Both the position numbers and the translations under genes were made by a program. A stretch of 64,000 nucleotides of DNA, from contig CANMVS010000001.1 in NCBI GenBank assembly GCA_947501445.1, positions 124,001-188,000 of the forward strand. The letters run 5' to 3'. Every line of letters begins with the position of its first letter. The first letter of the stretch is position 1. The DNA comes from an uncultured Rhizobiaceae group bacterium. Its GTDB lineage: Bacteria > Pseudomonadota > Alphaproteobacteria > Rhizobiales > Rhizobiaceae. Below the pieces are notes generated by a model, which ran no database searches, was not told the origin of the DNA, and was given only the letters and a program-made list of their open reading frames with translations. Positions 10,074 to 56,343 of this stretch are shown here, piece by piece.

Positions 10074-11729
10074 ATGACAATGATGAATCAGACACTGCCA
10101 TCCAATGGACACGGCACAAACGGGGACTGGTGGCGTGGCGCGGTCATGTATCAGATTTACCCCCGTAGCTACCAGGACAGCAATGGTGACGGCATTGGCG
10201 ATCTTCAGGGCATCGTACAGCGTCTTCCCTATATCGCGTCCCTGGGTGTCGATGGTATCTGGATTTCACCGTTTTTCACCTCGCCGATGAAGGATTTTGG
10301 CTATGATGTAAGTAACTATTGTGATGTGGATCCCATTTTCGGAACGATGGATGACTTCACAACCCTTGTTGAAAGAGCACATCAGCTTGGACTCAAGGTG
10401 ATGATCGACCTTGTATTGTCGCACACATCCGATGAGCATCCATGGTTTACCCAGAGCCGCTCCAATCGCGACAATGACAAGGCTGACTGGTATGTCTGGG
10501 CAGACCCGAAACCGGATGGCACACCGCCGAACAACTGGCTGTCCATTTTCGGCGGATCAGCCTGGCAGTGGGAGCCACGGCGCGAACAGTATTTTCTGCA
10601 TAATTTTCTTATCCAGCAACCGGATTTGAATTTTCACCAACCGGCCGTACAGGATGCACTTCTTGACGTCACCCGTTTCTGGCTTGACCACAAGGTTGAT
10701 GGATTTCGTCTCGACACGATTAACTTTTACTTCGCCGATAAGGCCCTGCGGGACAATCCCGCATTGCCCATTGAAAAGCGCAATGCAAACATTGCTCCCA
10801 GCGTAAATCCTTACAATCACCAGGAACATATTTATTCCAAGAACCAGCCGGAAAACCTTGAATTCCTGCAGCGATTTCGTGCGCTTCTGGATGAGTACCC
10901 GGCGACAGTGGCTTTGGGCGAGGTTGGTGATGCACAACATGGCCTCGAAATCCTGGGCCAATACACAGCCGGAAACGACCGCATTCACATGTGTTATGCC
11001 TTCGAATTCCTGGCCATGGAACAATTGACCGCGCAGCGCATAGCCGGTGTATTTAATCAGCTTGATCAGGTCGCCCAATCAGGGTGGGCCTGTTGGGCAT
11101 TCTCAAACCATGATGTCATGCGCCACAGCACCCGCTGGAACCTGACAGCGCAAGCCCAGCGACTGTTTGCAACCCTGTTGATGTGTATGCGCGGCTCCGT
11201 GTGCCTATATCAGGGCGATGAACTTGGGTTCCATGAAGCCGACGTGGATTTCGAAAATCTCAAAGATCCCTACGGCATCGAGTTCTGGCCCGAATATAAA
11301 GGGCGAGACGGCTGCCGCACGCCAATGGTGTGGGAAAACTCCAATCTGAATGGCGGGTTTTCGACTGCAAAACCCTGGCTTCCAGTCAGCCACGACCAGT
11401 TGCCACATTCAGCCAAATCACAGGAAGCCGACCCTGAAGCAATGTTGCATCATTATCGCCGGGTCATTGCGCTAAGGCATGCCTATAAAGCGCTGGCCAG
11501 AGGCAAACACGATGATGTCCGGGCCATCGGCAATGTCATACAATTCGTTCGCACAGAAGGCGATCAGGTAATCTTTTGCGCATTTAATGTTGGCAGTTCA
11601 CCAGCATTGATACCCTTCCCGCCAGGAAAATGGGATTCCATAGGTATCGAGTTGGGATGCGCAGGCATATCCGCTGATGGGAATTTGTATCTTGGCCCGT
11701 GGCAGTCCTGCCTCGCGTTGCGCCGCTAG
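10074..11729 (+). CDS. aglA: Alpha-glucosidase (glycoside hydrolase family 13)
   Basis: A 551-aa cytoplasmic GH13 enzyme that hydrolyses imported alpha-glucosides. The family motifs are present: DLVLSHTS, nucleophile Asp214 in GFRLD, general acid Glu283 in LGEVGD and the transition-state His346-Asp347 in FSNHD. No signal peptide is seen, in keeping with import by AglEFGK first. It is 17 bases after aglG. Its TAG stop codon (11727-11729) is also the first three bases of a 103-bp repeat that separates it from aglK. Confidence 0.93.
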   Translation: MTMMNQTLPSNGHGTNGDWWRGAVMYQIYPRSYQDSNGDGIGDLQGIVQRLPYIASLGVDGIWISPFFTSPMKDFGYDVSNYCDVDPIFGTMDDFTTLVERAHQLGLKVMIDLVLSHTSDEHPWFTQSRSNRDNDKADWYVWADPKPDGTPPNNWLSIFGGSAWQWEPRREQYFLHNFLIQQPDLNFHQPAVQDALLDVTRFWLDHKVDGFRLDTINFYFADKALRDNPALPIEKRNANIAPSVNPYNHQEHIYSKNQPENLEFLQRFRALLDEYPATVALGEVGDAQHGLEILGQYTAGNDRIHMCYAFEFLAMEQLTAQRIAGVFNQLDQVAQSGWACWAFSNHDVMRHSTRWNLTAQAQRLFATLLMCMRGSVCLYQGDELGFHEADVDFENLKDPYGIEFWPEYKGRDGCRTPMVWENSNLNGGFSTAKPWLPVSHDQLPHSAKSQEADPEAMLHHYRRVIALRHAYKALARGKHDDVRAIGNVIQFVRTEGDQVIFCAFNVGSSPALIPFPPGKWDSIGIELGCAGISADGNLYLGPWQSCLALRR

Positions 11730-11829
11730 AGCAATTCAGGTTTTGACGGAATCGGCGAAACCTGAATGCATCAACAAATTCAACGGCCGACACCGTTGTC
11801 CCGTTTCTGACAAAACGTGAAACGGTCTA
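11727..11829 (+). repeat. TAGA repeat, full copy, within the agl operon
   Basis: Complete 103-bp copy of the window's repeat family. It has a left palindrome (ATTCAGGTTTTG with a partly matched right arm), a right hairpin CCGTTTC/GAAACGG and terminal TAGA...TCTA. The first TAG is the stop codon of aglA. This is the only copy inside a clearly single operon; aglK begins 17 bases after it with its own ribosome site. Confidence 0.9.
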
Positions 11830-11845
11830 ATACAGGGAGACGATT

Positions 11846-12937
11846 ATGGCCAATCTGAAACTTACAGATATTGCAAAAAACTACGGGGGCACCGTTGATG
11901 TGCTCAAAAACATTAATCTGGACATCGAGACAGGTGAACTGATTGTATTCGTTGGTCCATCGGGCTGCGGGAAAAGCACCCTGCTGCGTATGATAGCCGG
12001 GCTGGAACGCATTACTGACGGAACGCTCGAAATTGATGGCATGCTGGTAAACGATGTCCCGCCTGCTCAAAGAGGCATAGCCATGGTATTCCAGAGCTAC
12101 GCTCTCTACCCGCATATGACCGTTCGCGACAATATGGCCTTTGCCCTCAAATTGGCCAAGAAAAGCAAAGCCGAAATCGACGAGGCCGTTAATCGCGCCG
12201 CCAAAGTTCTCCAGCTTGATGAGTATTTGGATCGCCTCCCAAAGGCGCTATCGGGCGGCCAGCGCCAGCGTGTGGCCATAGGCCGCTCGATTGTCCGCGA
12301 CCCGAAGGTTTATCTGTTTGATGAGCCGCTCTCAAATCTTGATGCGGCGCTGCGTGTGGCAACCCGCATTGAAATTGCGCAATTGAAAGAGTCAATGCCG
12401 GATTCAACCATGATCTATGTCACGCATGATCAGGTTGAAGCCATGACGCTCGCCTCCAGGATTGTTGTATTGGCGGATAAAGGCATCGCTCAGGTCGGCA
12501 CCCCGCTGGATTTGTATGAACGACCGGAAAATGAATTCGTCGCACAATTTATCGGATCGCCCGCCATGAACCTTTTGTCCGGTGAGATTGTCGAGACAGG
12601 TGCGAACACGACCGTCATGCTGGATGGTGGTGGCCAGGCCATCAGCACTGTATCAACAGACGAAGCAGACAAAGGCCTCAAGGTAAATGTTGGCGTCCGT
12701 CCAGAGGATTTTGTGGAATCCGCCGACGACGGATTTATCTATCAGGGAACCGTCAACTTTACCGAGGCTCTGGGAGAAGTGACGTTGCTTTATTTCCATG
12801 CACAACAGGGCGGCAACCCGATCATTGGCAAGCTACCGGGCATTCACTCCGACCTGCGCGGTAATACGGTCAAACTGACCGCAGCAGCCAGCAAGGTTCA
12901 GATATTCCATCAGGGCAAATCCCTGCTCTACCGCTAG
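11846..12937 (+). CDS. aglK: Alpha-glucoside ABC transporter ATP-binding protein
   Basis: A 363-aa MalK/UgpC-type ATPase. It shows Walker A GPSGCGKST (about residue 38), signature LSGGQRQR, Walker B LFDEPLSNLD, the H-loop THDQ, and a C-terminal OB-fold regulatory region (VGVRPEDF). It powers AglEFG. CAGGGAGACG precedes the ATG. A repeat with two hairpins lies between it and aglA, so its expression may be uncoupled from the upstream genes. Confidence 0.92.
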   Translation: MANLKLTDIAKNYGGTVDVLKNINLDIETGELIVFVGPSGCGKSTLLRMIAGLERITDGTLEIDGMLVNDVPPAQRGIAMVFQSYALYPHMTVRDNMAFALKLAKKSKAEIDEAVNRAAKVLQLDEYLDRLPKALSGGQRQRVAIGRSIVRDPKVYLFDEPLSNLDAALRVATRIEIAQLKESMPDSTMIYVTHDQVEAMTLASRIVVLADKGIAQVGTPLDLYERPENEFVAQFIGSPAMNLLSGEIVETGANTTVMLDGGGQAISTVSTDEADKGLKVNVGVRPEDFVESADDGFIYQGTVNFTEALGEVTLLYFHAQQGGNPIIGKLPGIHSDLRGNTVKLTAAASKVQIFHQGKSLLYR

Positions 12938-13045
12938 CAGGTTGCTTGTGTTGTGATCAGAACAAATCCGGTTGTCCGCGTGAATGCAGTAACACGGCTG
13001 CCAATTTCATTTCCTGACTGAAATTCAATCTACAAGTCGATTGAC

Positions 13046-13116
13046 TGCACTGTTTCACGTATTGACAGAAACGGGACAACGGTGCCGGCTTTGATTTTGT
13101 TGACGCATTCAGTTTT
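13046..13116 (-). repeat. TAGA repeat, partial copy, reversed
   Basis: Reverse-oriented partial copy. The right-half hairpin (GTTTCACG...AGAAACGG) and the conserved middle (TTGATTTTGTTGACGCATTC) are clear, and the left palindrome is lost. Minus-strand gene 13109-14407 stops at a TGA inside the copy, within the repeat's CTGAATGC motif. Confidence 0.8.
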
Positions 13117-14407
13117 CCTCATGACGCATCCGTCGCCACCATTGAGCAGGCTTCAGTCGCTTTGCCAATCCGCGCTTTGTCTCCAGATACAACGCAAGCT
13201 TTCGTAACCGCGAGCGTGCCAACATATGGAACAGGCGACCATAAAGCGTCGATTTTGGTTGAATGAACGGACAAACCCGCATGCAAATTGCGCAATCCGA
13301 TTTGAGTTTTGCCCAGTAACCGAAACATTTCTCACAATTGGCAGACCATTTTTTCACCCCCTTGATCGTCGACACACTTGAATTGTCTTCCTCGGGTGGT
13401 CCAAAGGGCAATGCCTTTGGTGGGCAGGCGTCTGCACATTTTGTGCAAATGTCGCAGTAAGCCCGAATGCCGGTTTGTACAGGTAAATCAATGGCCAATG
13501 GCAGATTGGTGAATATTTTCGAAAAGCGCACACGTGGGCCGAATTGCGGCGTAATAACCATTTGATTTCTACCGTACTCGCCAAGGCCTGCTTTTATGGC
13601 ATAGGGGATAACCAGCGCGGTATCGTTCATTGATGGGACCGCCTCATAACCCAAATTACGGATATAGGCAGCAAGCTGGATGACAATGGCGGTTTCATGG
13701 GAATATTCCAGCCCGGTTGCAACACCTGCAAGGGCCGACGGATATGTCTCCACAAGCGCTCCATCCATGGCATGCCCCATCACAATCACATGGGTCAGAC
13801 CATCTGGAAGCTCGTTGGCAACAGCACTCATGTCACGTGTATCGACGCGGGCCGAATAATGCCAACGCTGGTCTATTTGTGTAATTCCCACCAGGTCTGC
13901 GCCGAACAGGCTGGCAATCGACTTGATCTCGCGTGCCTGTGCCTCAATATCGTCGACTGGCAGGCGATCCTTGACCACAGGTGTGTCATAGCGAATTGAC
14001 GCCTGAAATCCTTCCCGTTCACCAACATCGTTATTGCGGTTGGATACCAGATCCGAAATGATCCAGGAGGCATTACGAAGAGCAAAGTCCTTTTGGGAAA
14101 ACCCCTCTCCGCGCCGCGGTGCAGATTCACTTCGATAACTGGCAAAAAAAGCATCAGAATGTTTGTTGCGTACCCGCTCGTCCCAAAAAGCCCGGGTAAA
14201 CATATCGTTCCTTTGATTGAAAGGTTCGAATTCTTCACTCACCTCAATGCCAGCCGCTGCATCGCTTTTGGCGAAACGGCTGTTTAATTTGGCGATATTG
14301 TCTTTGCCGGTATGCGCGGGTGGATTGTTGGATGGCCAGGTCAGCTTCGGGAACCTCTCCGTATTGTGCATGCGAATATAAAGGGATATTTGCATCTTGG
14401 ATGTCAT
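13109..14407 (-). CDS. Reductive-dehalogenase-like iron-sulfur protein
   Basis: A 432-aa protein resembling the RdhA catalytic domain: FGADLVGITQIDQRWHYS (168-185), ALAGVATGLEYSHE, and PYAIKAGLGEYGRNQMVITP. Two ferredoxin-like clusters follow: C318-x2-C321-x2-C324-x3-C328, and a second set from C358/C361, C372, C375 and C379. RdhA enzymes remove halogens with cobalamin; epoxyqueuosine reductase is a related alternative, but the sequence around the clusters reads like RdhA. No Tat signal and no RdhB-like anchor gene is seen, so a cytoplasmic form is likely. The start is uncertain (Met1, Met5 or Met13). The stop codon lies in a repeat. Activity on halogenated substrates is inference. Confidence 0.72.
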   Translation of the reverse strand: MTSKMQISLYIRMHNTERFPKLTWPSNNPPAHTGKDNIAKLNSRFAKSDAAAGIEVSEEFEPFNQRNDMFTRAFWDERVRNKHSDAFFASYRSESAPRRGEGFSQKDFALRNASWIISDLVSNRNNDVGEREGFQASIRYDTPVVKDRLPVDDIEAQAREIKSIASLFGADLVGITQIDQRWHYSARVDTRDMSAVANELPDGLTHVIVMGHAMDGALVETYPSALAGVATGLEYSHETAIVIQLAAYIRNLGYEAVPSMNDTALVIPYAIKAGLGEYGRNQMVITPQFGPRVRFSKIFTNLPLAIDLPVQTGIRAYCDICTKCADACPPKALPFGPPEEDNSSVSTIKGVKKWSANCEKCFGYWAKLKSDCAICMRVCPFIQPKSTLYGRLFHMLARSRLRKLALYLETKRGLAKRLKPAQWWRRMRHEEN

Positions 14408-14523
14408 ATTTCAATCACTGCAGGTCACTGTGCCGGTAAGGGGCATTCAACTGGCCTGATAGGTCAGGAAAATCGCTCCTGTTGTATCGCCTTAATTTGT
14501 ATGGCTAGCTGTGCGAACAGAAT

Positions 14524-15989: not shown

Positions 15990-16115
15990 ACATCAATGTA
16001 GAAAACCAATTTTTCACATAAACATTGATGGAGTAAGCCTACTGGCAATACATATGAATGTAGACTCCCACCCCCCACCGTCAGCACAATCGCCGTTGTG
16101 CTGACGGATTTTTTT
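15990..16115 (+). ncRNA. Candidate small RNA ending at an intrinsic terminator
   Basis: A stand-alone strong terminator has no coding gene directly upstream (the nearest stop is 500 bases away). The stretch before it can form GGAGT/ACTCC pairing (about 16030-16034 with 16064-16068) and contains an exposed C-rich run (TCCCACCCCCCACC) that could pair with Shine-Dalgarno sequences, as in alphaproteobacterial sRNAs with CCUCC loops. I see no clear promoter, and the 5' end is a guess. Confidence 0.35.
16078..16115 (+). terminator. Strong intrinsic terminator
   Basis: A perfect 12-bp stem CCGTCAGCACAA / TTGTGCTGACGG (16078-16089 with 16096-16107), loop TCGCCG, followed by a run of seven T after one A. 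It terminates plus-strand transcripts. Confidence 0.9.
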
Positions 16116-16237: not shown

Positions 16238-16339
16238 TAGAGCAATTCAGGTTTTGACGGAATCGGCAGAACCTGAATGCATCAACAAGTTCAAAGGCCG
16301 ACATCCCTGTCCCGTTATTGACAAAAGTGAAACGGTGTA
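16238..16339 (+). repeat. TAGA repeat, full copy
   Basis: Nearly complete copy (102 bp) with both hairpins, although the right one is weakened by a base change (CCGTTAT) and a shortened loop. It lies between the convergent LacI and EamA genes, but far from either stop codon. Confidence 0.88.
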
Positions 16340-16974
16340 GGGTCTGTTGAGGCTCAGGCAATTCAAATTGATACTGTTCACAGTTCGCAATTCTGTACAG
16401 CTGGTCCTTTTTTAAATTGCTTAAATCTGCAGATTGCCAGCACTAAGCCCTCCAATGACACTCCGATACTGGCCGATTCATCAAGCGGCCCATGTATTTA
16501 TTAGACCATTCAATTAAATTTTATGGTTTTTTTATTTGCAGATTATTGTATTGATTGACAAAGTAGATTCTCGGCGACTCTATAGAATGTGGAATGGGGA
16601 GATATTGCACCTGTCAGATCAACAGTCCGATGTGTGCGAAACAAATAGGCGGATTATATTGCATCACAGAATCTCACAACTGAGGTTCGGCGCAATTTCA
16701 AGATTTGATGATTGCTCGGTACGGGCTGGTGATCTACGCAGCGGTTAGCGTGTATTACCTGAATGCCCTGGAGCATCGCAAATAGTGACCGGTAAAGTTT
16801 CGGGGATCAATGTGGGAATTAATACCGACCACGGTTTGTTTATTCCATACAATCCCCAAAGAGTATAGAGAGCCAGGATTGCATTCTTGCACTGAGGACA
16901 TGCTGGCTTTCGTAGCCTCGCAACGCGTTTGGATCCGCCCATCCTGCACGTTGTGGGGCTACACTTTTCATCCT

Positions 16975-20113: not shown

Positions 20114-20142
20114 CCCGCTTCACGTTTTGGCAGAAGCAAAAG
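20114..20142 (-). repeat. Possible degraded TAGA repeat fragment
   Basis: CCCGCTTCACGTTTTGGCAG followed by AAGC resembles the reverse-oriented right hairpin of the repeat (GTTTCACGTTTTGTCAGAAAC) and still folds as GCTTC/GAAGC. It sits between the convergent LysE and FabF-like genes. This is the weakest member of the set. Confidence 0.4.
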
Positions 20143-22037: not shown

Positions 22038-22448
22038 ATGATGAAAATTGACAAGAACTACGATCTGCCCTTTCCACCGGATCAGGTGTTTGCCGCCTGG
22101 GTGTGTTCACAAACTGTGATCCCGCCAGCAACCCGTATGGACATCAATCCGATGGTTGGTGGTCACTTCCGCCTGTTCATGGAAAGCGAAGATCGCTGCA
22201 ATCGCGCCGAGGGCCTGTTTTTCGCCATCGAACCGGATCGCCATGTTCGCTATACATGGGAGTGGGACCGCGATGGTGAAATAACCGAGATTGACGTTCA
22301 ATTTGAACCTGCAGACGATGGAACCGCACTTCGAATACGTCACTCCGGATTTCGCAAGGAAGAAAGCAGAGATATGCACGACAGCGGCTGGGACAGCTAT
22401 GTCGAACAACTGTCTGCTCTTTTGGACAAGAACGAGGACAAACACTAG
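22038..22448 (+). CDS. SRPBCC/AHSA1-domain protein
   Basis: A 136-aa single-domain protein of the START-like AHSA1 family, seen in the opening PFPPDQVFAAWV, GGHFRLFM, and the late SGWDSYVEQLSALLD. Such proteins have a hydrophobic ligand pocket; their roles are mostly unknown. The start is ATG at 22038, with a second ATG immediately following. Its TAG stop (22446-22448) coincides with the left end of a repeat copy. Divergent from the MarR gene. Confidence 0.8.
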   Translation: MMKIDKNYDLPFPPDQVFAAWVCSQTVIPPATRMDINPMVGGHFRLFMESEDRCNRAEGLFFAIEPDRHVRYTWEWDRDGEITEIDVQFEPADDGTALRIRHSGFRKEESRDMHDSGWDSYVEQLSALLDKNEDKH

Positions 22449-22549
22449 TTCAATTCAGGTTTTGGCGGTATCGGCAAGACCTGAATGCATCGACAAAATC
22501 AAAGGCCGACATAGTCGTCCCGTTTCTGACAAAACATGAAACGGTCTGG
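22446..22549 (+). repeat. TAGA repeat, full copy
   Basis: Complete copy with both hairpins, lying between convergent genes. Its first TAG is the stop codon of the SRPBCC gene; the right end (GGTCTG) has lost the terminal A and ends 55 bases before the aminotransferase stop. Confidence 0.9.
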
Positions 22550-24828: not shown

Positions 24829-24834
24829 TCTCCA

Positions 24835-24933
24835 TAGCACTTCAGGTTTTGACGGGTGCGACGACATCTGAATGCATCAACAAAATCAAAGGCCGGCGCT
24901 GTTGTTCCGTTTCTGACAAAACGTGAGACGGAC
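24835..24933 (+). repeat. TAGA repeat, near-full copy
   Basis: Copy of about 99 bp with a diverged left palindrome loop (GGGTGCGACGACAT in place of the usual sequence) and a right hairpin with one change (GAGACGG). It lies between the convergent GyrI-like and arsH genes, six bases past the first and 13 bases from the second stop. Confidence 0.82.
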
Positions 24934-24946
24934 AAAAACCGTGTTG

Positions 24947-27425: not shown

Positions 27426-27446
27426 TAGGGCAATTCAGGTTTTGAT
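27426..27446 (+). repeat. TAGA repeat, left-end fragment
   Basis: TAGGGCAATTCAGGTTTTGA only; the rest of the element is gone. It lies between the convergent GST and AOC-like genes. Confidence 0.75.
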
Positions 27447-30803: not shown

Positions 30804-30839
30804 CCGTTTCACATGTCTGACAACAGGTGAACCGGTCTA
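30804..30839 (+). repeat. TAGA repeat, right-half remnant
   Basis: Decayed right half: CCGTTTCACATGTCTGACAA and then GGTGAACCGGTCTA, keeping the terminal TCTA. The minus-strand phosphotransferase-like gene uses this terminal TAG as its stop (30837-30839). It sits between convergent genes. Confidence 0.7.
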
Positions 30840-32475: not shown

Positions 32476-32578
32476 TAGAGCACTTCAGGTTTTGACGGAA
32501 TTGGCAAAACCTGAATGCATCAACAAAATAAACTGCTGACACTGTAGTCCCGTTTCTGACAAAACGTGAAACGGTCTA
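32476..32578 (+). repeat. TAGA repeat, full copy
   Basis: Complete 103-bp copy with perfect 12-bp left palindrome arms (TTCAGGTTTTG / CAAAACCTGAA) and CCGTTTC/GAAACGG on the right. Its terminal TCTA provides the TAG stop of the minus-strand MATE gene (32576-32578). It sits between convergent genes. Confidence 0.92.
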
Positions 32579-34006
32579 GCTGACATGGCGAAAAAGACCC
32601 CAGCGGTAGCTTTTCTGACGACGAACCTGCAAAAGCAGGAAAAACGTGACACCAAGCATCAGAATTTCGGCCGTTGGTCCAGCAAGCCAGACCCCTGTTT
32701 CACCAAAGGCGAATGGCAGGATAAAGGTAAGCGGCAGCACAAAGAAATATGTCCGCGACAGATTCATCACAGCAGACCTGCGGGCATCTCCGGTTGCCTG
32801 AAAATAGGTGGCCAACATCATCGTCGGGCCAAACATGAAGAAGAGAGCAAACATGAAGGGCAATATCCGTCCGGTTTGCGCCGCTATGGCATCATCATCC
32901 ACAAATCCATAACTTATGACATCGGCAAATGTCAAAAACGCAACCTGAGCGACAATACAATAAATCACCGCCAGAGATAACGCCAACCGAATGCTGGCAT
33001 CTGTCCGCGACCAGATCTGTGCACCGTAATTATTGCCGAGTACCGTTTGGAACGCCATCGAAAGACCCAGCAAAGGCAGGAAGGAAAACGTCATCAGTCG
33101 CGTGGCGATGCCGTAGGCACCCACCGTTGCGGCATAATCATCTCCGCTCCACAATTGCAAACTGTAGATAACCGCTGCACTGGCCAGTGATACACCCAGG
33201 TACCCCAGACTTGTCGGCACACCCAGCGCCAGATAGTCACCCCAATAGCGACGTATTGCGTGAAAAGACATCGCGCCGAATGCCATCAAGGATGGGCTGA
33301 AAAACCTGTAAACCAGGATCGTCACCAGTGCGACAAGCTGCGCTGCGATTGTTCCCAGAGCAGAGCCGGCCACACCCCAGTCCATTCCAACGATCAGCAG
33401 GTAGTTAAACATGACGTTGAGCGCGATTGTGGACAGAGATGCGATGGTCATAAAGGCAACTCGCCCCTCGCAACGCAGCAAATCGAAAAACAACATTTCA
33501 ATGAATGTGATGGGTGACAAAATAACCAGTATCGCAATGTAGGTGTAACCCATTTGCGCAAGCGTTTCGGCCCCCCTGGCAACAACATCAACAAGGCCGC
33601 TCCCGCCAGCCAGAAAGCCAGCGATCAATAGCCCGCACAATATGAGGGAAAGTAAAATGGCGCCGATCAACGCATTGCCCAGAGCGTCCGGTTTCTCACC
33701 GGCCCCAAGCAATCGGGCCATAACGGAGGAAAAACCATTTGAAACGATTGTCGCCATTGCGATGAGCATCATAAAGAGCGGAAACATCAAGGTCACAGCG
33801 GTCAACGCGTCAGCGCCAACAAAAAATCCGAGAAACCACGCATCCACCAGAGTGAACAACCCGTTCACCAGCATTACCAGAATGATTGGCGTCGCTGTTC
33901 TGGCGAAAACACGACCCAACGACCCGGTCAGGTAGCGGTTATCAGGTTTATCATCAATGTTGTCAGCACTGGAACCTGCTGCAGCAACAGTGTCAATTTC
34001 ACCCAT
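32576..34006 (-). CDS. MATE family efflux transporter
   Basis: A 476-aa inner-membrane antiporter with twelve predicted segments in two halves; MATE pumps export cationic drugs or metabolites using Na+ or H+. Recognisable parts are the opening PIILVMLVNGLFTLVDAWFLGF and a second-half GYLGVSLASAAVIYSL with LGLSMAFQTVLGNNYGA. AAAGG lies nine bases before the ATG at 34006. The divergent TetR gene with a large palindromic operator probably controls it. The stop codon is supplied by a repeat copy. Confidence 0.88.
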   Translation of the reverse strand: MGEIDTVAAAGSSADNIDDKPDNRYLTGSLGRVFARTATPIILVMLVNGLFTLVDAWFLGFFVGADALTAVTLMFPLFMMLIAMATIVSNGFSSVMARLLGAGEKPDALGNALIGAILLSLILCGLLIAGFLAGGSGLVDVVARGAETLAQMGYTYIAILVILSPITFIEMLFFDLLRCEGRVAFMTIASLSTIALNVMFNYLLIVGMDWGVAGSALGTIAAQLVALVTILVYRFFSPSLMAFGAMSFHAIRRYWGDYLALGVPTSLGYLGVSLASAAVIYSLQLWSGDDYAATVGAYGIATRLMTFSFLPLLGLSMAFQTVLGNNYGAQIWSRTDASIRLALSLAVIYCIVAQVAFLTFADVISYGFVDDDAIAAQTGRILPFMFALFFMFGPTMMLATYFQATGDARRSAVMNLSRTYFFVLPLTFILPFAFGETGVWLAGPTAEILMLGVTFFLLLQVRRQKSYRWGLFRHVS

Positions 34007-35829: not shown

Positions 35830-36158
35830 GGGTACCCTCGACCTTTCCCATAGGTTCAACGTTGTGATTTGCTCTCATTCGCATCCGTGAGAGCAACACA
35901 AGTTCAACTAAAGTCATAAACGGTGACTGCAACAAATTAACAAAATATTACAAATATTACCGCACCAAATATCATATATACATAACTGAGGGCAAATTTT
36001 CTCAATGTTTTCAAATATTAATACGAAGTGGTTAATTTAAATCCTGTTAAAATTGTTGGTAAACTCACCCGACAAACATTACCAGCGACTGAAGATTGCC
36101 TATTTTTGTTGTATATTGGCACCATGTTACTTGCCCGGGCTCTATTGAGGATCAGCTT
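35830..36158. other. AT-rich promoter region of the outer-membrane gene
   Basis: About 330 bases, strongly AT-rich from 35930 to 36060. It presumably contains the promoter for the minus-strand barrel gene. Nothing else recognised. Confidence 0.4.
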
Positions 36159-36203
36159 GTGGTGTCGGCCTTTGATTTTGTTGATGCATTCACGCAGGTT
36201 CAG
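36159..36203 (-). repeat. TAGA repeat, partial copy, reversed
   Basis: Reverse-oriented middle part (GGTGTCGGCCTTTGATTTTG then TTGATGCATTC), followed by a rearranged remnant of the left palindrome. The minus-strand lipase-like gene stops at a TGA within ACCTGAA at 36200-36202, that is, in repeat-derived sequence. Confidence 0.75.
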
Positions 36204-38471: not shown

Positions 38472-39638
38472 ATGACAAATCACCACTGGCAAACGACAAT
38501 GGCTGCAATGATGTGCCTGTCTCTATTGATGGGGTACAGGGCACAGGCAGCCGACGTTATTCCACTGACAGCTGACAATGGCACCCTGTTCGCAGACTAC
38601 GACCCCAAGGCCAAGGCAGACCGCAATGTCAGCGGTGCAACATGTTTTTCTGATGGATCATGCATATTGGTCTCTGACGAAATGATTGCCGTCCAGAGGA
38701 TACAGTTGAAACTCAAAGGCAAAAGTTCTTCCTATAGTGTTGGCCGCACCTATGGCAGAATATTTGGCGACAAATGTACCGACATTGGGAAAAAGAAAAA
38801 ATGCAACGAGGTCGATCTGGAGGCTATCGCCAGCAATGGCAATAAAATCCTGGTCACTGGCTCAATGGGCAACAAAAGCAAGAGTGGAAAACGGGCCAGG
38901 GATCGCTGGTTTCTGGGCGAATTTGCAATAGGTAAGAATGGCAAGCCGCGTTCTGGCAGCCTGTCACTGCAATCCAAACGTAGCGTGCTTAAAGTCATGT
39001 TTGAACAGCATGGGGCTCTCAAACCCTATGTCGAAAAGCCACTTCAATGCGGCGGGATCAACATTGAAGGTCTTGCTGTCCTTGACGACCAGATTTTTTT
39101 CGGGTTACGCAGTCCTTCAGGCCCCAAAAATGGCCAGGCCTATATCCTTCAGGCCGATGACAGGATTCTGTCGACAGATAACAAGAAGAATGTAGGATCC
39201 ACGACATTGCACAGGCTTACATTCAAGGATCGCTCAAAGCGCAAACTGAAGAACCTTGGTATTCGTGCCTTGGAGACCATCGGCACAAAAATGCTTATTG
39301 TCACTGCTGATTCCGGCGTTTCCAGCCCGGATACCCCTGCCCGCCGCCGCGACATCACCTCCCGATGCGTGAGCGTACCCAATGGCGCGGATTTACCAAA
39401 TGTCGCCACCAGGCTGCTCAAACCGAAAATTTGGCTGTGGGATCCGAATACAAAGAAACAACCGGTCGAAATATTTGAACTGGGTGGCGATTACGGCGAT
39501 GAAAAACTCGAGGGTATTGCCATAATTCCCGGCTCTGCCTCACGGGCCGATACCGTCGATCTTTTGCTCACGATTGATGGGCAAAATGATGTACCGGCAC
39601 TGGCACTTCTTCAAGGTCTGGAAATTCCCAACCTTTAG
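38472..39638 (+). CDS. Secreted DUF3616-like protein
   Basis: A 388-aa exported protein: signal peptide ending YRAQA before ADVIPL. The mature part reads like DUF3616 / beta-propeller proteins: NVSGATCFSDGSCILVSDE, DLEAIASNGNKILVTGS, NIEGLAVLDDQIFFGLRSP and EKLEGIAIIPGS. It is rich in lysine. A phytase-like esterase fold is the alternative. No close partner gene. The stop TAG (39636-39638) is also the start of a repeat fragment. Confidence 0.68.
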   Translation: MTNHHWQTTMAAMMCLSLLMGYRAQAADVIPLTADNGTLFADYDPKAKADRNVSGATCFSDGSCILVSDEMIAVQRIQLKLKGKSSSYSVGRTYGRIFGDKCTDIGKKKKCNEVDLEAIASNGNKILVTGSMGNKSKSGKRARDRWFLGEFAIGKNGKPRSGSLSLQSKRSVLKVMFEQHGALKPYVEKPLQCGGINIEGLAVLDDQIFFGLRSPSGPKNGQAYILQADDRILSTDNKKNVGSTTLHRLTFKDRSKRKLKNLGIRALETIGTKMLIVTADSGVSSPDTPARRRDITSRCVSVPNGADLPNVATRLLKPKIWLWDPNTKKQPVEIFELGGDYGDEKLEGIAIIPGSASRADTVDLLLTIDGQNDVPALALLQGLEIPNL

Positions 39639-39660
39639 GGCAATTCAGGTTTTGATGGAA
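39636..39660 (+). repeat. TAGA repeat, left-end fragment
   Basis: TAGGGCAATTCAGGTTTTGA then divergence. Its first TAG is the stop codon of the DUF3616-like gene. It lies between convergent genes. Confidence 0.78.
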
Positions 39661-39711
39661 TATTCATAACGCAAAATGTGGTCACTGCATTTGATGTCGC
39701 CTGATCGCTCA

Positions 39712-42798: not shown

Positions 42799-43560
42799 AT
42801 GAACCTGACAGCGAGGGAAACCGGCATTGTTTTTCGCATCATGAGCGAATTATCCAATGATCACAATCTATCGGTTCTGCGTGAGACTATCGGCAAATTG
42901 ATACTCGAACTGCTGGAGGCGCAATATTTCGCGTCCTACGTCTGGAACGGGAAGAAGGCGGTTTTCGAAAACCGTATTGCCCTCAACATGAGCGATGAAA
43001 ACCTGTCGGAATATGAAACATACTACCAGTACCGCGATCCAATCACCCCCCGACTGCAGCGTCGCCGCAAAACAACGGCCGTCAGTGAGGTCATGTCGCG
43101 CAGGGCTTTTGAAAAATGCGAATTTTTCAATGATTTCCTCGCCCGTGACGGTTTGCACTTCGGCATAAATTGTTTCGCCTATTCTGCAGGACAAAATATT
43201 GGCGATCTGCGTATTTGGCGCGGCACCGGAAAGGAAGATTTTACCCGTCGGGATCTGGCAATCATGGATGCCATAGGGCCAGCCTTTACAAATGCAGTCC
43301 GTTTGGCCCTGATACGGGAAAACCGCAGCGGTTCCAGCCTGCCTTTGACCAATGCGCTGGAAAGAGCTGATTTTGCCGCTCTGCTAACAAAGAGGGAGAG
43401 GGAAATTGCCGGAGCAGTCCTGCTGGGGAAAACAGACCAGCAGATTGCCGATACCCATTTCATTTCCATCACAACGGTACGCACCCACCTCAAACATATT
43501 TTTAGCAAGCTCAACATAACCAGCCGCACCCAATTGATGCATCGTATCGCGCTGCATTAG
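42799..43560 (+). CDS. LuxR family transcriptional regulator
   Basis: A 253-aa protein with an N-terminal sensor-like domain and a C-terminal LuxR helix-turn-helix (LTKREREIAGAVLLGKTDQQIADTHFISITTVRTHLKHIFSKL). The sensor half is not clearly the acyl-homoserine-lactone type. ATG 42799 (MNLTARETG) is preferred over the frame start at 42757. It lies 130 bases upstream of the amidase gene on the same strand, so control of that operon is likely. The TAG stop (43558-43560) is the left end of a repeat copy. Confidence 0.85.
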   Translation: MNLTARETGIVFRIMSELSNDHNLSVLRETIGKLILELLEAQYFASYVWNGKKAVFENRIALNMSDENLSEYETYYQYRDPITPRLQRRRKTTAVSEVMSRRAFEKCEFFNDFLARDGLHFGINCFAYSAGQNIGDLRIWRGTGKEDFTRRDLAIMDAIGPAFTNAVRLALIRENRSGSSLPLTNALERADFAALLTKREREIAGAVLLGKTDQQIADTHFISITTVRTHLKHIFSKLNITSRTQLMHRIALH

Positions 43561-43594
43561 CGCAATTCAGGTTTTGACAGAACCGGCAAAACCG
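43558..43594 (+). repeat. TAGA repeat, left-half copy
   Basis: TAGCGCAATTCAGGTTTTGA and the matching CAAAACC arm; the right half is missing. Its first TAG is the stop codon of the LuxR gene. Confidence 0.8.
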
Positions 43595-43609
43595 CCGCAA
43601 CAGAAAAAA

Positions 43610-51870: not shown

Positions 51871-51892
51871 GAGTTTTACACAATTCAGTACG

Positions 51893-53125
51893 TTAAGTGC
51901 GCCACCAGCGACGCGGCTCAACATTTTCCGGTTTCATGTCCGCTGGCACTTCACGTGCCACCTTGGATATGTCGGTATAGGTGTCAATACCACCGGCCCA
52001 TCCGTTCAGGCGTTCGCGCCATGCTGCCCAGGGTTCGGGATTATATTCAGGCGAACACATTTCCTCTGCCATTTTGATCTGATCAGCAGCAAGGAATGCC
52101 GGCCGAACATTGTTTTCCACGAATACAGTGCCGGGTAACTGAGGATCAGAAAAGCCAACGGTTTTAACCAGTGCGGCTTCATTTGCAGCCTGTACGTGAA
52201 CCTGAGCAAGATAGGATGATTCCATAACAGCGTCCTGCAAATGACCGTCAAGTGAATCAAACACTTTTGCAGACATGGATGTATGTTCCGTACCGCAGAA
52301 GAATTTCAGATCAACAGACTGCGACACAACCGGAGACATATTGGCATAGGCAACCGCAGACGCCCAGGTTTCAGCACCGTCAATAAGGCCCTGCTTAAGA
52401 CCATCGAGTGTTTCTTCCCATGCAACCGGAACAGGGTTCAGATTGAGAAGCTGCATGGCAATACGTCCGAGCTGCGTGCCCGTTACGCGGTTTTTCGTGC
52501 CAAAAAGCTGCTCAAGCTTGGTGATGGTGGGGTCTTTTTCAAATTTGAGACCCAATTGGATGCCACGCAGTTCACAATGGCTGAACAGGAACTTCAAACC
52601 ATGGCGTTTTTCCAGTGGATCACGCAAAATTCGCTGACTTTCCGGGCTATATAGAAAGTGATACTGCGATGCCCGACCCGGGAACATATAGGCATAATCA
52701 AGTACGTTCAGATAGGGCGCACCACCGGCTGAGTTCTGTGTTGAAGCTGCATAAATATCAACAATACCCAACTGTGTTTTCTCAACGCAGGAAAGCTGGC
52801 CGCAAATCTGGTTGTCACCGATGAATTCAACCTGAATTTCACCCTCTGTACGCTCTTCAAGGTCACGCGCAAATTCAAGACAACCGGCACGTTCGATGAG
52901 CAGATTACGGCCGTTAAATCCGGACGCGCCAAATTTCAACGTGTGTTTCGCCGGATTTTTGAAACGTTTTTTGTAGGTCGATTCAGCCGCCTGAGCGAGT
53001 GAAGAGATGCTGGTGGCGGCACCAAAGGTACCGGCAGCCATGAGTGTTGACGCAATGCCAAACTGGCCCGTCAACTTGAATAGATCGCGACGCGAAATTG
53101 CGCCAAGCGCGTTCGAGACTTTCAT
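51893..53125 (-). CDS. TRAP transporter substrate-binding protein (DctP)
   Basis: A 410-aa periplasmic protein. The signal carries a twin-arginine motif (SRRDLFKLTG) before a hydrophobic stretch ending AQAAES. The mature part follows the DctP fold: LEERTEGEIQVEFIGDNQICGQLSCVEKTQLGIVDIYA and WEETLDGLKQGLIDGAETWAS. GGGAGGAATAA precedes the ATG at 53125. Substrate unknown; the divergent GMC oxidoreductase suggests an alcohol or polyol-like compound. Confidence 0.87.
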   Translation of the reverse strand: MKVSNALGAISRRDLFKLTGQFGIASTLMAAGTFGAATSISSLAQAAESTYKKRFKNPAKHTLKFGASGFNGRNLLIERAGCLEFARDLEERTEGEIQVEFIGDNQICGQLSCVEKTQLGIVDIYAASTQNSAGGAPYLNVLDYAYMFPGRASQYHFLYSPESQRILRDPLEKRHGLKFLFSHCELRGIQLGLKFEKDPTITKLEQLFGTKNRVTGTQLGRIAMQLLNLNPVPVAWEETLDGLKQGLIDGAETWASAVAYANMSPVVSQSVDLKFFCGTEHTSMSAKVFDSLDGHLQDAVMESSYLAQVHVQAANEAALVKTVGFSDPQLPGTVFVENNVRPAFLAADQIKMAEEMCSPEYNPEPWAAWRERLNGWAGGIDTYTDISKVAREVPADMKPENVEPRRWWRT

Positions 53126-53154
53126 TTATTCCTCCCAAAAACAAATGCCAAAAA

Positions 53155-53171
53155 TGAGACTTGTAGTCTCA
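53155..53171. promoter_or_regulatory. Palindrome in the dctP/GMC divergent promoter region
   Basis: TGAGACTTGTAGTCTCA, perfect 7-base arms around TGT, 30 bases upstream of the dctP start and about 85 bases upstream of the GMC start. A candidate operator for a regulator (perhaps GntR-like) encoded elsewhere. Confidence 0.55.
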
Positions 53172-53254
53172 AAAAAACACATTATGGTGCGAGATGCAAG
53201 TCACAATTCGAATTATCGTCGTTAATGCATACCTAATAAGGGGAGAAACCGGTT

Positions 53255-54853
53255 ATGGAGAACACTGAGGCCGACTATATAGTTGTTGGAGCAGGCTCAG
53301 CCGGTTGCGTGCTTGCCAATAGATTGAGTGCCGACGGCAAGAGCAAAGTCATACTGCTTGAAGCCGGTGGGCGGGATCTCAATCCATGGATCCACATCCC
53401 TGTCGGTTACTTCAAGACAATGCACAATCCCAGTGTCGACTGGTGCTACAGCACGGAACCCGATCCTGGTCTGAATGGCCGCTCACTGGACTGGCCGCGC
53501 GGCAAGGTACTTGGCGGCTCCTCCTCACTTAATGGCTTGCTTTATGTAAGGGGCCAGCAGCAGGATTATGATCGCTGGCGGCAGATGGGTAATGATGGCT
53601 GGGGATGGGATGACGTACTTCCGCTGTTTCGCCGCGCCGAAAACCAGGAACGCGGCGAGGATGAGTATCATGGCGTTGGCGGTCCGCTGAATGTGTCCAA
53701 CATGCGGTTGAAGCGACCCATCTGTGACGCCTGGGTCGCGGCGGCCCAAAATGAGGGCTATGCGTTCAATACAGACTATAATGGTGCTGAGCAGGAAGGT
53801 GTCGGTTATTTTCAGCTGACAGCACGAAAAGGCCGGCGATGCAGCAGTGCCGTGGCCTATCTCAACCCGGCCAAATCAAGACCCAATCTGAAAATCATCA
53901 CACGTGCACAGGCGCAGAAAATCATTTTCGAAGGCACCCGTGCCGTTGGAATTACCTATATTGACCGCAGCGGACAGGAACAGACCGTTCGAACAAACGG
54001 CGAGATCATTTTGTCTTCGGGCGCAATCGGCTCCCCCCACCTGTTGATGTTGTCCGGCATCGGAGAAGCCGAACAATTGCGCCACAATGACATATCCGTC
54101 GTTTCGGACTTGTCCGGTGTCGGCAAAAATCTGCAGGACCACCTCCAGGCACGTCTTGTCTTCAAATGCAATGAACCTACCCTCAATGATGAGGTTCGAA
54201 GTCTACATAATCAGGCGCGTATCGCTTTGAAATACCTCATGTTTCGCGCTGGCCCAATGGCCATGGCCGCCAGTCTGGCAACCGGGTTCATCAAGACCCG
54301 TGACGAGGTGGAAACGCCCGACATTCAATTCCATATTCAGCCCTGGTCAGCGGATAGCCCGGGAGAAGGTGTTCATCCTTTTTCTGCCTTTACCATGTCT
54401 GTTTGTCAGTTGCGCCCTGAAAGCCGCGGGGAAATTCGGCTTAAGGACGCAAATGCGTCAACCTATCCGGCCATTCATCCCAATTATCTGGCAACGCAGA
54501 CCGACTGCAGGACCATCATTGACGGCGTAAAGATCGCCCGCAACATCGCGGCTCAAAGACCGCTGGAAAGTAAAATCGCCAGTGAATTTCGGCCGGGAAA
54601 CGCTGTCGTGACCGACGAGCATATTCTGCAATGGGTGCGCGATGATGCGACAACAATCTACCATCCGACCGGAACGTGCAAAATGGGCACCGGTAAATCA
54701 GCCGTCGTCGATGCACGGCTGCGTGTTCATGGCGTGCAGGGATTGCGCGTCGCCGATTGCTCCATCATGCCCGAAATTGTCTCAGGCAATACAAATGCAC
54801 CGGCAATCATGATAGGCGAAAAAGCCAGTGATATGATCCTCGCAGACCGTTAG
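53255..54853 (+). CDS. GMC family FAD oxidoreductase (choline-dehydrogenase-like)
   Basis: A 532-aa flavoenzyme. The N-terminal FAD loop VVGAGSAGCVLANRLS, the GMC signature (RGKVLGGSSSLNGLLYVRG), the second signature (GAIGSPHLLMLSGIGE) and the C-terminal active-site region YHPTGTCKMG with GNTNAPAIMIGEKASD are all present. It oxidises an alcohol to an aldehyde; choline is only one possibility. AAGGGGAGA precedes the ATG. Divergent to a TRAP transporter that may import its substrate. The TAG stop is the start of a repeat copy. Confidence 0.9.
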   Translation: MENTEADYIVVGAGSAGCVLANRLSADGKSKVILLEAGGRDLNPWIHIPVGYFKTMHNPSVDWCYSTEPDPGLNGRSLDWPRGKVLGGSSSLNGLLYVRGQQQDYDRWRQMGNDGWGWDDVLPLFRRAENQERGEDEYHGVGGPLNVSNMRLKRPICDAWVAAAQNEGYAFNTDYNGAEQEGVGYFQLTARKGRRCSSAVAYLNPAKSRPNLKIITRAQAQKIIFEGTRAVGITYIDRSGQEQTVRTNGEIILSSGAIGSPHLLMLSGIGEAEQLRHNDISVVSDLSGVGKNLQDHLQARLVFKCNEPTLNDEVRSLHNQARIALKYLMFRAGPMAMAASLATGFIKTRDEVETPDIQFHIQPWSADSPGEGVHPFSAFTMSVCQLRPESRGEIRLKDANASTYPAIHPNYLATQTDCRTIIDGVKIARNIAAQRPLESKIASEFRPGNAVVTDEHILQWVRDDATTIYHPTGTCKMGTGKSAVVDARLRVHGVQGLRVADCSIMPEIVSGNTNAPAIMIGEKASDMILADR

Positions 54854-54952
54854 AGCATTCAGGTTTTGACAGAACCGGCAAAACCTGAATGCAGCAACAA
54901 AATCAATGGCCAACACCGTGGTCCCGTTTCTGACAAAACGTGAAACGGTCTC
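54851..54952 (+). repeat. TAGA repeat, full copy
   Basis: Near-complete copy missing one base of the left end (TAGAGCATTCAGG) and with a changed terminal end (GGTCTC). Both hairpins intact. Its first TAG is the stop codon of the GMC gene. Confidence 0.9.
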
Positions 54953-54959
54953 TGTCGAA

Positions 54960-55142
54960 TCACAATCCGCCTACTTCTTCGCATTCAACTGCATATTGAA
55001 TCCCATCAAGTATGATGAAACACTCCGTATCTGCTGCTGCTTCTTCCTCCACCTGCCCACCGCAGGCTTTTGGAATAACAACAAAAATAATCAGCGCCAG
55101 CACACTGGCTGTAAAAGCATTTTGCCAACCCTGATTGAGCAT
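54960..55142 (-). CDS. Possible small membrane protein, 60 aa
   Basis: A 60-codon frame beginning MLNQGWQNAF, followed by a hydrophobic helix (TASVLALIIFVVIPKACGG) and an acidic tail (VEEEAAADTE). AGAAGG lies nine bases before the ATG at 55142. Charge pattern, helix and ribosome site make it more than random, but I do not recognise a family. It would converge with the GMC gene across the repeat copy. Confidence 0.45.
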   Translation of the reverse strand: MLNQGWQNAFTASVLALIIFVVIPKACGGQVEEEAAADTECFIILDGIQYAVECEEVGGL

Positions 55143-55308
55143 GTCGTAAACCTTCTCAACGTGGCTGGAGCCAGAACAACCATCATTGCGGCTTTCTGTT
55201 GCCGCTGAAATGCAAGTGTCCCGTAACAAAGACACATTTGCAACCTTGATCAGCAATCAATACCGCAGTGCAATTCCAATTCCATTTGTTTGCGGCGCAA
55301 TGGTTGGC

Positions 55309-55716
55309 TCACAATGAAGGATCAACAGGATCCCAAGGCTGGGCCTGCGCACCAAATACAACAAACTGGGCGTTAAACGCAGATGGGTCATCCAGTGTCG
55401 CCGCAAGAAAGTAAAATCTGTCGGGATAGGCTCCGGACATGGAAACGATGGGCGAACCGCAGGTTTCGCAAAAGCCGCTCCGGGTACGCGCCCCGCTATC
55501 TGCCGACTGCTCAAAATACTTCAGCGGTCCCAACAGCGTCGTTTCAGCTTTTTTGACTGCAAAGGCTGGTGCGTGCCCCGTGCCCGTCAAATGCTGGCAC
55601 TTTCTGCAATGGCAATGGAATGAGAATTCCCACTGTTTCGGTACATCATATCGAACGGCACCACACGCACATCCACCGGTCAGACAGTCGACGCCAATAG
55701 TTGTTGTTTCTGGCAT
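55309..55716 (-). CDS. GFA family (Mss4-like fold) protein
   Basis: A 135-aa zinc-fold protein like the one at 39712: GGCACGAVRYDV, CHCRKCQHLTGTGHAPAF and FCETCGSPIV provide the cysteines. I start at ATG 55716 (MPETTTIG); the upstream frame crosses two operator-like repeats. Divergent from an HxlR regulator that may control it. Confidence 0.85.
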   Translation of the reverse strand: MPETTTIGVDCLTGGCACGAVRYDVPKQWEFSFHCHCRKCQHLTGTGHAPAFAVKKAETTLLGPLKYFEQSADSGARTRSGFCETCGSPIVSMSGAYPDRFYFLAATLDDPSAFNAQFVVFGAQAQPWDPVDPSL

Positions 55717-55732
55717 TTCATTGCAATCCCGT

Positions 55733-55784
55733 TTCAGTTGCGTTATGCAAGTAACCACATTCAGTTGCACTATGCAAGTGACCA
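55733..55784. promoter_or_regulatory. Two direct-repeat operator units for HxlR
   Basis: Two 25-bp units (55733-55757 and 55760-55784) matching at 22 of 25 positions with a 27-bp period. Each contains an inner TTGC...GCAA inverted repeat (TTGCGTTATGCAA, TTGCACTATGCAA). They fill the gap between the divergent GFA and HxlR genes, as expected of operator sites for the adjacent regulator. Confidence 0.75.
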
Positions 55785-55812
55785 AGCTGGATCATCTGCA
55801 AGGACAGGATTG

Positions 55813-56259
55813 ATGGCTAATCGAAATGAAAAACTGCGTTCGCACTGCCCCGTTAATTTTGCGCTGGAGGCTATTGGAGATCGCTGGAGCCTGCTCATCA
55901 TTCGCGATATCCTGCTAAACGGCAAGCAGAGCTTTGGTGCTTTGCTGGAATCTGACGAACAAATCGCAACAAACATATTGTCGGAACGGCTTGTCCGCCT
56001 TGTAGAGATGGACATTATCTGGCGTCAGCGCGATCCACACGATGGACGAAAATTTGTGTATGACACGACACCAAAGGGAGATGCTTTGTTGGGCGTAGTG
56101 TTGGAGCTGGGTGCCTGGGGAGCGCAATATGATCCCCAGACCGTTGCGCCGCAAGGCACATCCGCACAATATTATGCGGACCGCACAGGCACCATCGAAA
56201 AGGCCAGACTGTCGCTGGTAAAACGGCGGGGATCAGCCCCTGGACCAATTCAGGTTTAG
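55813..56259 (+). CDS. HxlR family transcriptional regulator
   Basis: A 148-aa winged-helix regulator: CPVNFALEAIGDRWSLLIIRDILLNGKQSFGALLES, ILSERLVRLVEMDII and YDTTPKGDALLGVV are the family pattern. ATG 55813 follows AGGACAGGATTG. The last codons (GPIQV, then TAG at 56257-56259) are read from the left end of a repeat copy, so the C-terminus is partly repeat-encoded. Likely regulates the divergent GFA gene through the paired direct repeats. Confidence 0.87.
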   Translation: MANRNEKLRSHCPVNFALEAIGDRWSLLIIRDILLNGKQSFGALLESDEQIATNILSERLVRLVEMDIIWRQRDPHDGRKFVYDTTPKGDALLGVVLELGAWGAQYDPQTVAPQGTSAQYYADRTGTIEKARLSLVKRRGSAPGPIQV

Positions 56260-56343
56260 ACGGAACCGACAAAATCTGTATGCGTCAACAAAATCAAAGG
56301 CCGACACCCTTGTCCCGTTTCTGACAAAACGTGAAACGGTCCA
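56241..56343 (+). repeat. TAGA repeat, full copy
   Basis: 103-bp copy with altered ends (TGGACC... and ...GGTCCA) and a diverged left palindrome; right hairpin intact. The HxlR gene ends inside it; the sulfatase stop lies seven bases beyond the right end. Between convergent genes. Confidence 0.88.

What the first reader, a model, noticed from the sequence alone, without database searches (positions are those of the whole stretch)
11727..56343. A 103-bp two-hairpin repeat at eleven of fifteen convergent gene junctions
Fourteen full or partial copies were found by eye. Full copies have a left palindrome (ATTCAGGTTTTG / CAAAACCTGAAT), a conserved middle, a right hairpin (CCGTTTC / GAAACGG) and imperfect terminal inverted repeats (TAGAGCAATTCAGG against TAGACCGTTTCACG, 10 of 14). 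This resembles rhizobial RIME-type mosaic elements or a MITE. Convergent junctions at 13.0, 16.3, 20.1, 22.5, 24.9, 27.4, 30.8, 32.5, 39.6, 54.9 and 56.3 kb carry a copy; those at 1.0, 3.3, 34.9 and 49.7 kb do not. A role as a bidirectional 3'-end signal or insulator between converging transcripts is inference.
Basis: partly seen in the sequence, partly recalled or inferred. Interest (0 to 1): 0.82.

Follow-up and report, generated by a model that had tools for sequence, protein, structure and literature searches.

The report
RIME-like repeats landing on stop codons
This bacterial genome carries hundreds of copies of a 103-letter, apparently mobile repeat with two hairpins that inserts at TA, often on a gene's stop codon, which it rebuilds, so copies collect where two genes end facing each other; it looks like a cousin of a repeat known from root-nodule bacteria.

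Summary
In detail: 14 copies in the window (7 full, 7 partial), 11 at convergent junctions. In 2.0 of 6.8 Mb of the genome a profile found 197 copies: in 86 of 298 convergent, 86 of 1153 codirectional and 18 of 296 divergent gaps.

It is a MITE-like mobile repeat with sharp ends, TA|GAGCAATTC...GGTC|TA. Its left hairpin is kept by compensatory changes across genera. Matches occur in 15 of 109 sampled genera of the family, our own included. A second subfamily matches the abundant Rhizobium/Sinorhizobium repeat that I take, from memory, to be RIME1. A rhizobial empty site shows insertion into the TA of a TAA stop, TA duplicated, stop rebuilt as TAG.

Convergent enrichment is reported for parasitic repeats and IS elements too (PMC3049150), so a terminator role is not needed. 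Two features resist this: convergent occupancy hardly depends on gap length, and only one gap holds two copies (10.5 expected). A bidirectional 3'-end role stays possible but unproven; U-tracts directly after the hairpins are almost absent.

The parts
11727..11829 (+). full copy, codirectional; its first TAG is the stop codon of the called gene 10074-11729
13045..13136 (-). partial copy (right part), convergent junction 13.0 kb
16238..16340 (+). full copy, convergent junction 16.3 kb; a type-2 end (TA|GGGTCTGTTGAGGCTCAGG) abuts its right TA
20115..20137 (-). weak fragment of the right hairpin, convergent junction 20.1 kb (E 0.011)
22446..22548 (+). full copy, convergent; TAG 22446-22448 is the stop of the gene 22038-22448
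24833..24935 (+). full copy, convergent junction 24.9 kb
27426..27445 (+). left-end fragment, convergent junction 27.4 kb (E 0.16 by profile; member of repeat family D3)
30804..30838 (+). right-end fragment, convergent junction 30.8 kb (E 0.011)
32476..32578 (+). full copy; its right-end CTA is the TAG stop of the minus-strand gene 32576-34006
36161..36194 (-). middle fragment, codirectional; followed by a type-2-like right end
39636..39668 (+). left fragment; TAG 39636-39638 is the stop of the gene 38529-39638
43558..43605 (+). left fragment, codirectional; TAG 43558-43560 is the stop of the gene 42799-43560
54850..54952 (+). full copy; TAG 54851-54853 is the stop of the gene 53255-54853; the G085 ortholog, without the element, ends at the same residue
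56241..56343 (+). full copy, convergent; the called gene 55813-56259 ends inside it

Best explanation
The repeat is a non-autonomous, MITE-like mobile element of about 103 bp and a Rhodobacteraceae subfamily of the RIME1-type repeats of rhizobia. It inserts at TA and leaves TA on both sides. Its core begins with G, so an insertion into the TA of a TAA or TAG stop codon rebuilds the stop as TAG and leaves the protein unchanged (shown at one rhizobial site; inferred for window copies from orthologs with equal or nearly equal C-termini). Copies survive where they do little harm: on stop codons, in 3' flanks and between convergent genes; they are lost from operons, promoters and coding sequence (inference from the distribution). 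The hairpins are conserved across genera, perhaps because mobility or an RNA/ssDNA form needs them (inference). The transposase is not identified; an IS5-family enzyme with TA targets is the best lead.
For: Sharp ends and TA flanks in 94 full copies. In the first 1.2 Mb, 34 copy edges lie at or inside a gene's 3' end for 876 such positions (38.8 per kb), against at most 3.5 per kb in bins farther out, and none at or inside a start. Of 163 3' ends beside near-complete copies, 30 are within a few bases of the copy edge; the 24 at -1 or -2 all read TAG. Empty and filled sites: R. beringeri, R. ruizarguesonis and R. johnstonii have GGCGCT|TA|AAACCC; R. leguminosarum and R. brockwellii have the element between two TAs. 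The gene is annotated as 201 bp in two filled records and one empty one (225 bp in R. johnstonii, another start; R. beringeri unannotated). S. meliloti LMB1 and Rm41 differ by the element at GGTC|TA|GATCCG. Window gene 53255-54853 and its G085 ortholog, without element, end at the same residue with TAG; four other orthologs end within a few residues. Window alpha-glucosidase is 551 aa by my gene call, against 550 aa in two relatives without the insert. Homology: R2 finds 4 of 5 rhizobial copies at E 3.7e-8 to 7e-4 (S. meliloti L156 missed); R3 ranks four of the seven full window copies first, E 0.0012, 0.017, 0.15, 0.26. Patchy spread: 19 of 294 family genomes, own included; no match at E <= 0.001 in four same-genus genomes. 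An IS5-family remnant in this genome has ends TA|GGGCCTGTGGACAT...ATGTCCACGGGCCC|TA, the second TA being the first bases of a copy.
Against: In the window's genome left and right dinucleotide variants are uncorrelated (29 of 94 equal, 28.9 in shuffles), so duplication is not shown there copy by copy. Across genera the TIR-like ends do not coevolve: 587 of 793 cells paired against 581 +/- 5, odd for a TIR-recognised MITE; within the own genome they show a small excess, 1194 of 1313 against 1187 +/- 2.5. The Rhizobium filled sites carry two further changes next to the TA (AAACCC to GAATCC). S. medicae keeps a decayed element-like stretch at the S. meliloti site, so loss in Rm41 is as possible as gain in LMB1. 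R3 is a weak match to the window, and six of its 11 sequences were found with R2. No matching transposase was found: no PF13358, one decayed Y1, five DDE_Tnp_1. Convergent occupancy is nearly flat with gap length and doubly occupied gaps are too few. TA-stop occupancy is higher at convergent stops (32/324) than at codirectional stops before gaps of 150 bp or more (5/157), p 0.0099 pooled, but p 0.36 in the fresh sample alone.
Confidence: 0.7

Rival explanations
1. The element is kept by selection as a bidirectional 3'-end signal: two hairpins stop or trim both transcripts at a convergent junction, and one copy per junction is enough. Mobility supplies copies; function retains them.
For: 86 of 298 convergent gaps occupied; occupancy 19-67% in each of seven residual-length classes, while codirectional occupancy rises from 3/244 to about a quarter; one convergent gap with two copies against 10.5 expected, P 0.0003 pooled, and 0 against 3.1, P 0.045, in the fresh sample. 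Convergent excess in other genera: 23 of 54 placed copies against 29 of 207 other gaps (uneven, 7 of 9 in G203, 1 of 8 in G244). Left-hairpin covariation. Consensus folds better than shuffles on both strands, z -4.4 and -4.1. One terminator-like site inside the 11727 copy, minus strand.
Against: TTTT within 10 nt after a hairpin in only 3 of 548 places in 137 full copies. Convergent 3' ends with a copy do not lack other terminator-like sites: 7 of 110 against 9 of 180 without (summed by me); a strong one lies at 16078-16107 near the 16238 copy. G297 shows no significant excess. Parasitic repeats and IS elements elsewhere show such an excess (PMC3049150). Recombination between nearby copies could also explain the lack of double occupancy.
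Confidence: 0.2
2. It is a REPIN-like pair of REPs moved by a Y1/RAYT enzyme; the conserved end hairpins are the substrate.
For: Self-contained hairpins near each end with TAG outside them; conserved left hairpin but uncoupled ends across genera; GTAG REPs also supply TAG stops (PMC3733652, section 15); a broken Y1 gene in the genome.
Against: The base before TA is G in only 4 of 94 copies. TA is duplicated at a rhizobial site; Y1 elements leave no duplication (recalled). Only one decayed Y1 match was found.
Confidence: 0.08

Closest known systems
RIME1 (Rhizobium-specific intergenic mosaic element; Osteras et al. 1995, not held; identification recalled)
   Same: About 105 bp, two palindromes, ends TAGAGCAATTC...TCTAG; model matches in both directions in full register; copies of both can supply the TAG stop.
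   Different: Different hairpin sequences; found in a Rhodobacteraceae-like genome rather than Hyphomicrobiales; about 100 copies per Mb here against 1-35 BLAST places in the rhizobial records listed.
BOX/RUP/SPRITE repeats of Streptococcus pneumoniae (PMC3049150, passages)
   Same: Short repeats over-represented between convergent genes; RUP targets contain TA (PMC2229807, passages); BOX encodes the stop in 36 of 58 overlapping genes.
   Different: No relation by sequence was tested; RUP is tied to IS630-Spn1 there, while no PF13358 gene was found here.
GTAG/CGTC REPs (PMC3733652, passages and section 15) and REPINs (PMC3116915, search listing only)
   Same: Palindromes near 3' ends, convergent or codirectional gaps, TAG stops supplied.
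   Different: No GTAG tag; two unlike hairpins in a fixed 103-bp unit; TA duplication.

Membership tests
RIME1-type repeat | sequence homology to the rhizobial repeat over its full length | tested here: met
   R2 finds 4 of 5 rhizobial loci at E 3.7e-8 to 7e-4; R3 finds window 11727 at E 0.0012, model 1-105. Weak in the second direction; that the rhizobial repeat is RIME1 is recalled.
RIME1-type repeat | about 105 bp with two palindromes, intergenic | tested here: met
   193 of 197 copies placed in gaps
RIME1-type repeat | match to the published RIME1 sequence | not testable with these tools
   paper PMC177356 not held
MITE | target-site duplication | tested here: inconclusive
   TA duplication at a Rhizobium site; in the window's genome TA commonest on both sides but variants uncorrelated
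MITE | terminal inverted repeats recognised by a partner transposase | tested here: inconclusive
   15 of 21 end positions agree in the consensus (counted by eye); no end-to-end coupling across genera, a small excess within the genome; no partner found
REPIN/RAYT | GTAG or CGTC tag | tested here: not met
   base before TA: C 47, T 30, A 13, G 4 of 94
REPIN/RAYT | intact RAYT in the genome | tested here: not met
   one Y1_Tnp match with an internal TGA
intrinsic terminator | hairpin followed by a U-tract | tested here: not met
   TTTT in 3 of 548 places after the two hairpins in 137 of 138 full copies; one looser terminator-like site inside the 11727 copy
3'-end punctuation element | RNA 3' ends at the copies | not testable with these tools
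   no transcript data

The most novel reading that the evidence does not exclude
A mobile repeat has been drafted as one-per-junction bidirectional 3' punctuation: it lands on stop codons without changing the protein, and selection keeps a single copy between closely convergent genes, so that transposition builds transcript boundaries across the genome.
Probability: 0.2. Interest if true: 0.75.

Novelty: new member of a known kind. Interest (0 to 1): 0.45.

Why it matters
It links an abundant repeat of a Rhodobacteraceae-like genome to the rhizobial RIME repeats, and gives a concrete reason why such repeats gather at 3' ends: TA targeting plus a leading G rebuilds TAA/TAG stops. With about 100 copies per Mb, this genome is a good place to test whether hairpin repeats are mere passengers or serve as transcript ends.

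Tried and rejected
IS630 partner: no PF13358 match in the genome. TIR-coupled MITE: no end-to-end coupling across genera. REPIN: tag not met. Rfam: no match at gathering scores in the window. Solo ends in 1.2 Mb were listed and looked over by eye for a pair around a gene; no obvious pair, no systematic test. Another high-copy intergenic repeat as a neutral control: after masking, the largest families link only about ten gaps and look coding. Terminator substitution: copy-bearing and copy-free gaps alike, numbers small. BLAST of the window consensus against plasmids: no match. Class-wide scan with R2: four weak genomes besides our own of 385; only about ten candidates per genome were scored, so it is insensitive.

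Rows dropped: of 80 R2 matches 63 were aligned; reverse-strand duplicates, short and weak ones were left out. The covariation count uses 57 of these 63; the six of the second subfamily were left out. These copies were found with a model that contains the structure, and related copies inflate shuffle tests. In one search, 2 of 56 copies could not be placed, and the copies are the best-scoring ones of each genome, not a random draw.

The rhizobial context tally is biased, because several hits were chosen after seeing a gene name under the match, and is not used as a statistic: of 15 loci, 4 had no annotation; of the other 11, 8 are convergent and 8 lie on a stop.
Full report
CHECK OF THE OBSERVATION. 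Seven full and seven partial copies are there; three of the partial ones are weak. Eleven of 14 lie at convergent junctions, three at codirectional ones. The window is bases 124001-188000 of contig C1 of a 6.82-Mb genome in 110 contigs.

COUNT IN THE GENOME. I read 2.0 of 6.82 Mb and called genes with a simple coding-score caller of my own. An iterated nucleotide profile found 197 copies after merging the double hits that palindromes give (129 in the first 1.2 Mb, 68 in the next 0.8 Mb; 4 of 197 fell outside any gap). That would be roughly 670 in the whole genome; the first look had 637 candidates, 40 of them scored. Gaps with a copy: convergent 86/298, codirectional 86/1153, divergent 18/296; convergent against the rest, odds ratio 5.2, p 2e-22. 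The convergent excess was already known when the second sample was fetched; it repeats there: 30/124, 33/475, 3/122, p 1e-8.

THREE PREDICTIONS written down before the second sample was fetched, tested. (1) TAA/TAG stops carry a copy more often when convergent: repeated against all codirectional stops (12/137 against 3/204, p 0.002), not significant against codirectional stops before gaps of 150 bp or more (12/137 against 2/51, p 0.36). (2) Occupancy of convergent gaps does not grow with residual length: fresh counts 7/38, 6/24, 8/21, 3/17, 2/7, 2/3, 2/7, broadly flat but small. (3) Few convergent gaps with two copies: 0 against 3.1 expected, P 0.045.

ANATOMY. The alignment of 94 full copies from the first 1.2 Mb has sharp edges: Y-TA|GAGCAATTCAGGTTTTG...GTGAAACGGTC|TA-R; median divergence from consensus is 8%. 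Across 57 copies from 9 genomes the left hairpin is paired in 820 of 904 cells against 738 +/- 6 in shuffles, with 108 kept double changes against 37.5 +/- 11. The right hairpin shows less (329 of 396 against 321 +/- 3). The pairing of one end with the other shows none (587 of 793 against 581 +/- 5). Within the own genome's 94 copies the effects are small: left hairpin 1391 of 1496 against 1383 +/- 2, right 607 of 658 against 607 +/- 2, end to end 1194 of 1313 against 1187 +/- 2.5 (all). So over long times the left hairpin, not the inverted-repeat pair, is what is kept. A type-2 variant shares the left half but ends TA|GGGTCTGTTGAGGATCAGG.

STOP CODONS. In the first 1.2 Mb, 34 copy edges lie at or inside a gene's 3' end for 876 such positions, 38.8 per kb, against at most 3.5 per kb in bins farther out, and none at or inside a start. 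Of 163 3' ends beside near-complete copies, 30 lie within a few bases of the copy edge, and the 24 at -1 or -2 all read TAG. In other genera 27 of 56 copies have an end within a few bases of a stop. This does not look like truncation: the rhizobial gene is annotated with the same length with and without the element, apart from one record with another start, and orthologs of the window gene 53255-54853 without the element end at the same residue (G085) or within a few. Some genes do end inside a copy, for example 55813-56259. Insertion into the TA of TAA or TAG yields TA+G = TAG.

RELATIVES. With model R2, 19 of 294 genomes of the family in 15 of 109 genera match, our own included; with the plain DNA query 14 of 297. 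Four same-genus genomes have no match at E <= 0.001. bin.49 (JANSYK, found; G297) has at least 40 matches; it is probably G682 of the same genus, judged from contig numbers and size. Six R2 matches (L148-L153) form a second subfamily; one of them as a query hits 490 plasmid records, mainly Rhizobium and Sinorhizobium, and a R. leguminosarum copy hits 523. I take that repeat to be RIME1 from memory; the founding paper is not held. Models match in both directions, clearly one way and marginally the other.

MECHANISM. Shown: TA flanks; one clean rhizobial insertion into the TA of a TAA stop with TA duplicated; a second S. meliloti site with the element present or precisely absent at TA (S. medicae keeps a decayed element-like remnant there, so loss in Rm41 is as possible as gain in LMB1). 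Inferred: the same chemistry in the window's genome and an IS5-type mobiliser. An IS5-family remnant in this genome shares the TA target and sits against a copy.

WHY CONVERGENT GAPS. The simple reading is tolerance: such gaps have two stops and no promoter. Published counts for pneumococcal IS elements (22 convergent, 52 upstream of a gene, against 149 and 1800 repeat-free sites; PMC3049150, passages seen) give an odds ratio near 5 by my arithmetic, like ours. Against a purely passive reading, pooled over 2.0 Mb: occupancy of convergent gaps barely changes with length (22/75 at 0-30 bp residual, 8/24 above 400 bp), while codirectional occupancy rises (3/244 to 16/76, with 20/82 at 250-400 bp); one of 298 convergent gaps has two copies (10.5 expected); and convergent TA-stops are occupied more than codirectional stops before gaps of 150 bp or more (32/324 against 5/157, p 0.0099). 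Recombination between close copies could explain the second point. In other genera 23 of 54 placed copies are convergent against 29 of 207 other gaps (p 1.3e-5), unevenly by genome. G297 shows no clear excess (3/48 against 10/285). The hairpins lack U-tracts, but one looser terminator-like site was scored inside the 11727 copy. I leave a selected 3'-end role at about one in five.

LITERATURE. Searches of the held library: in the listings and passages that I saw there are RIME mentions (PMC2245857, PMC5498481; passages) but no account of RIME insertion at stop codons, of convergent enrichment of RIME, or of the element in Rhodobacteraceae. Most subscription papers are not held, so this is weak evidence of novelty.

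Noticed in passing
L113:1075-1921 (G000 C2, near 146.6-147.1 kb): A frameshifted IS5-family element whose ends sit at TA and directly abut a copy of the repeat, sharing its TA.
   Followed up: partly
G000 C1 15.5, 50.8, 278.7, 296.4, 384.6 kb and window 16339, 36140-36194: Type-2 variants share the left half or middle but have an IS5-like right end TA|GGGTCTGTTGAGGATCAGG; some abut full copies as if nested at the shared TA.
   Followed up: partly
G000 C2:64-65, 307-311 kb; C1:31-35, 89 kb; C3:257 kb: About nine related stretches in apparent intergenic space, probably missed or badly called small genes with a shared part.
   Followed up: no
G000 C2:249-250 kb and C3:80-83 kb: Long, apparently tandem blocks (unit several hundred bp, judged by eye) in intergenic regions.
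   Followed up: no
L108:1318-1830: The only Y1 (REP-type) transposase match in the genome is broken by a stop; a copy of the repeat lies about 0.8 kb away.
   Followed up: partly
window 16078-16107: A strong intrinsic terminator-like hairpin with a T-run near the 16238 copy.
   Followed up: no
window 11781-11798, minus strand: A terminator-like hairpin with a T-rich tail scored inside the 11727 copy; the middle of the element is T-rich on that strand.
   Followed up: no
L211 (Rhizobium ruizarguesonis pRlX2): A RIME1-like copy lies between groES and groEL.
   Followed up: no
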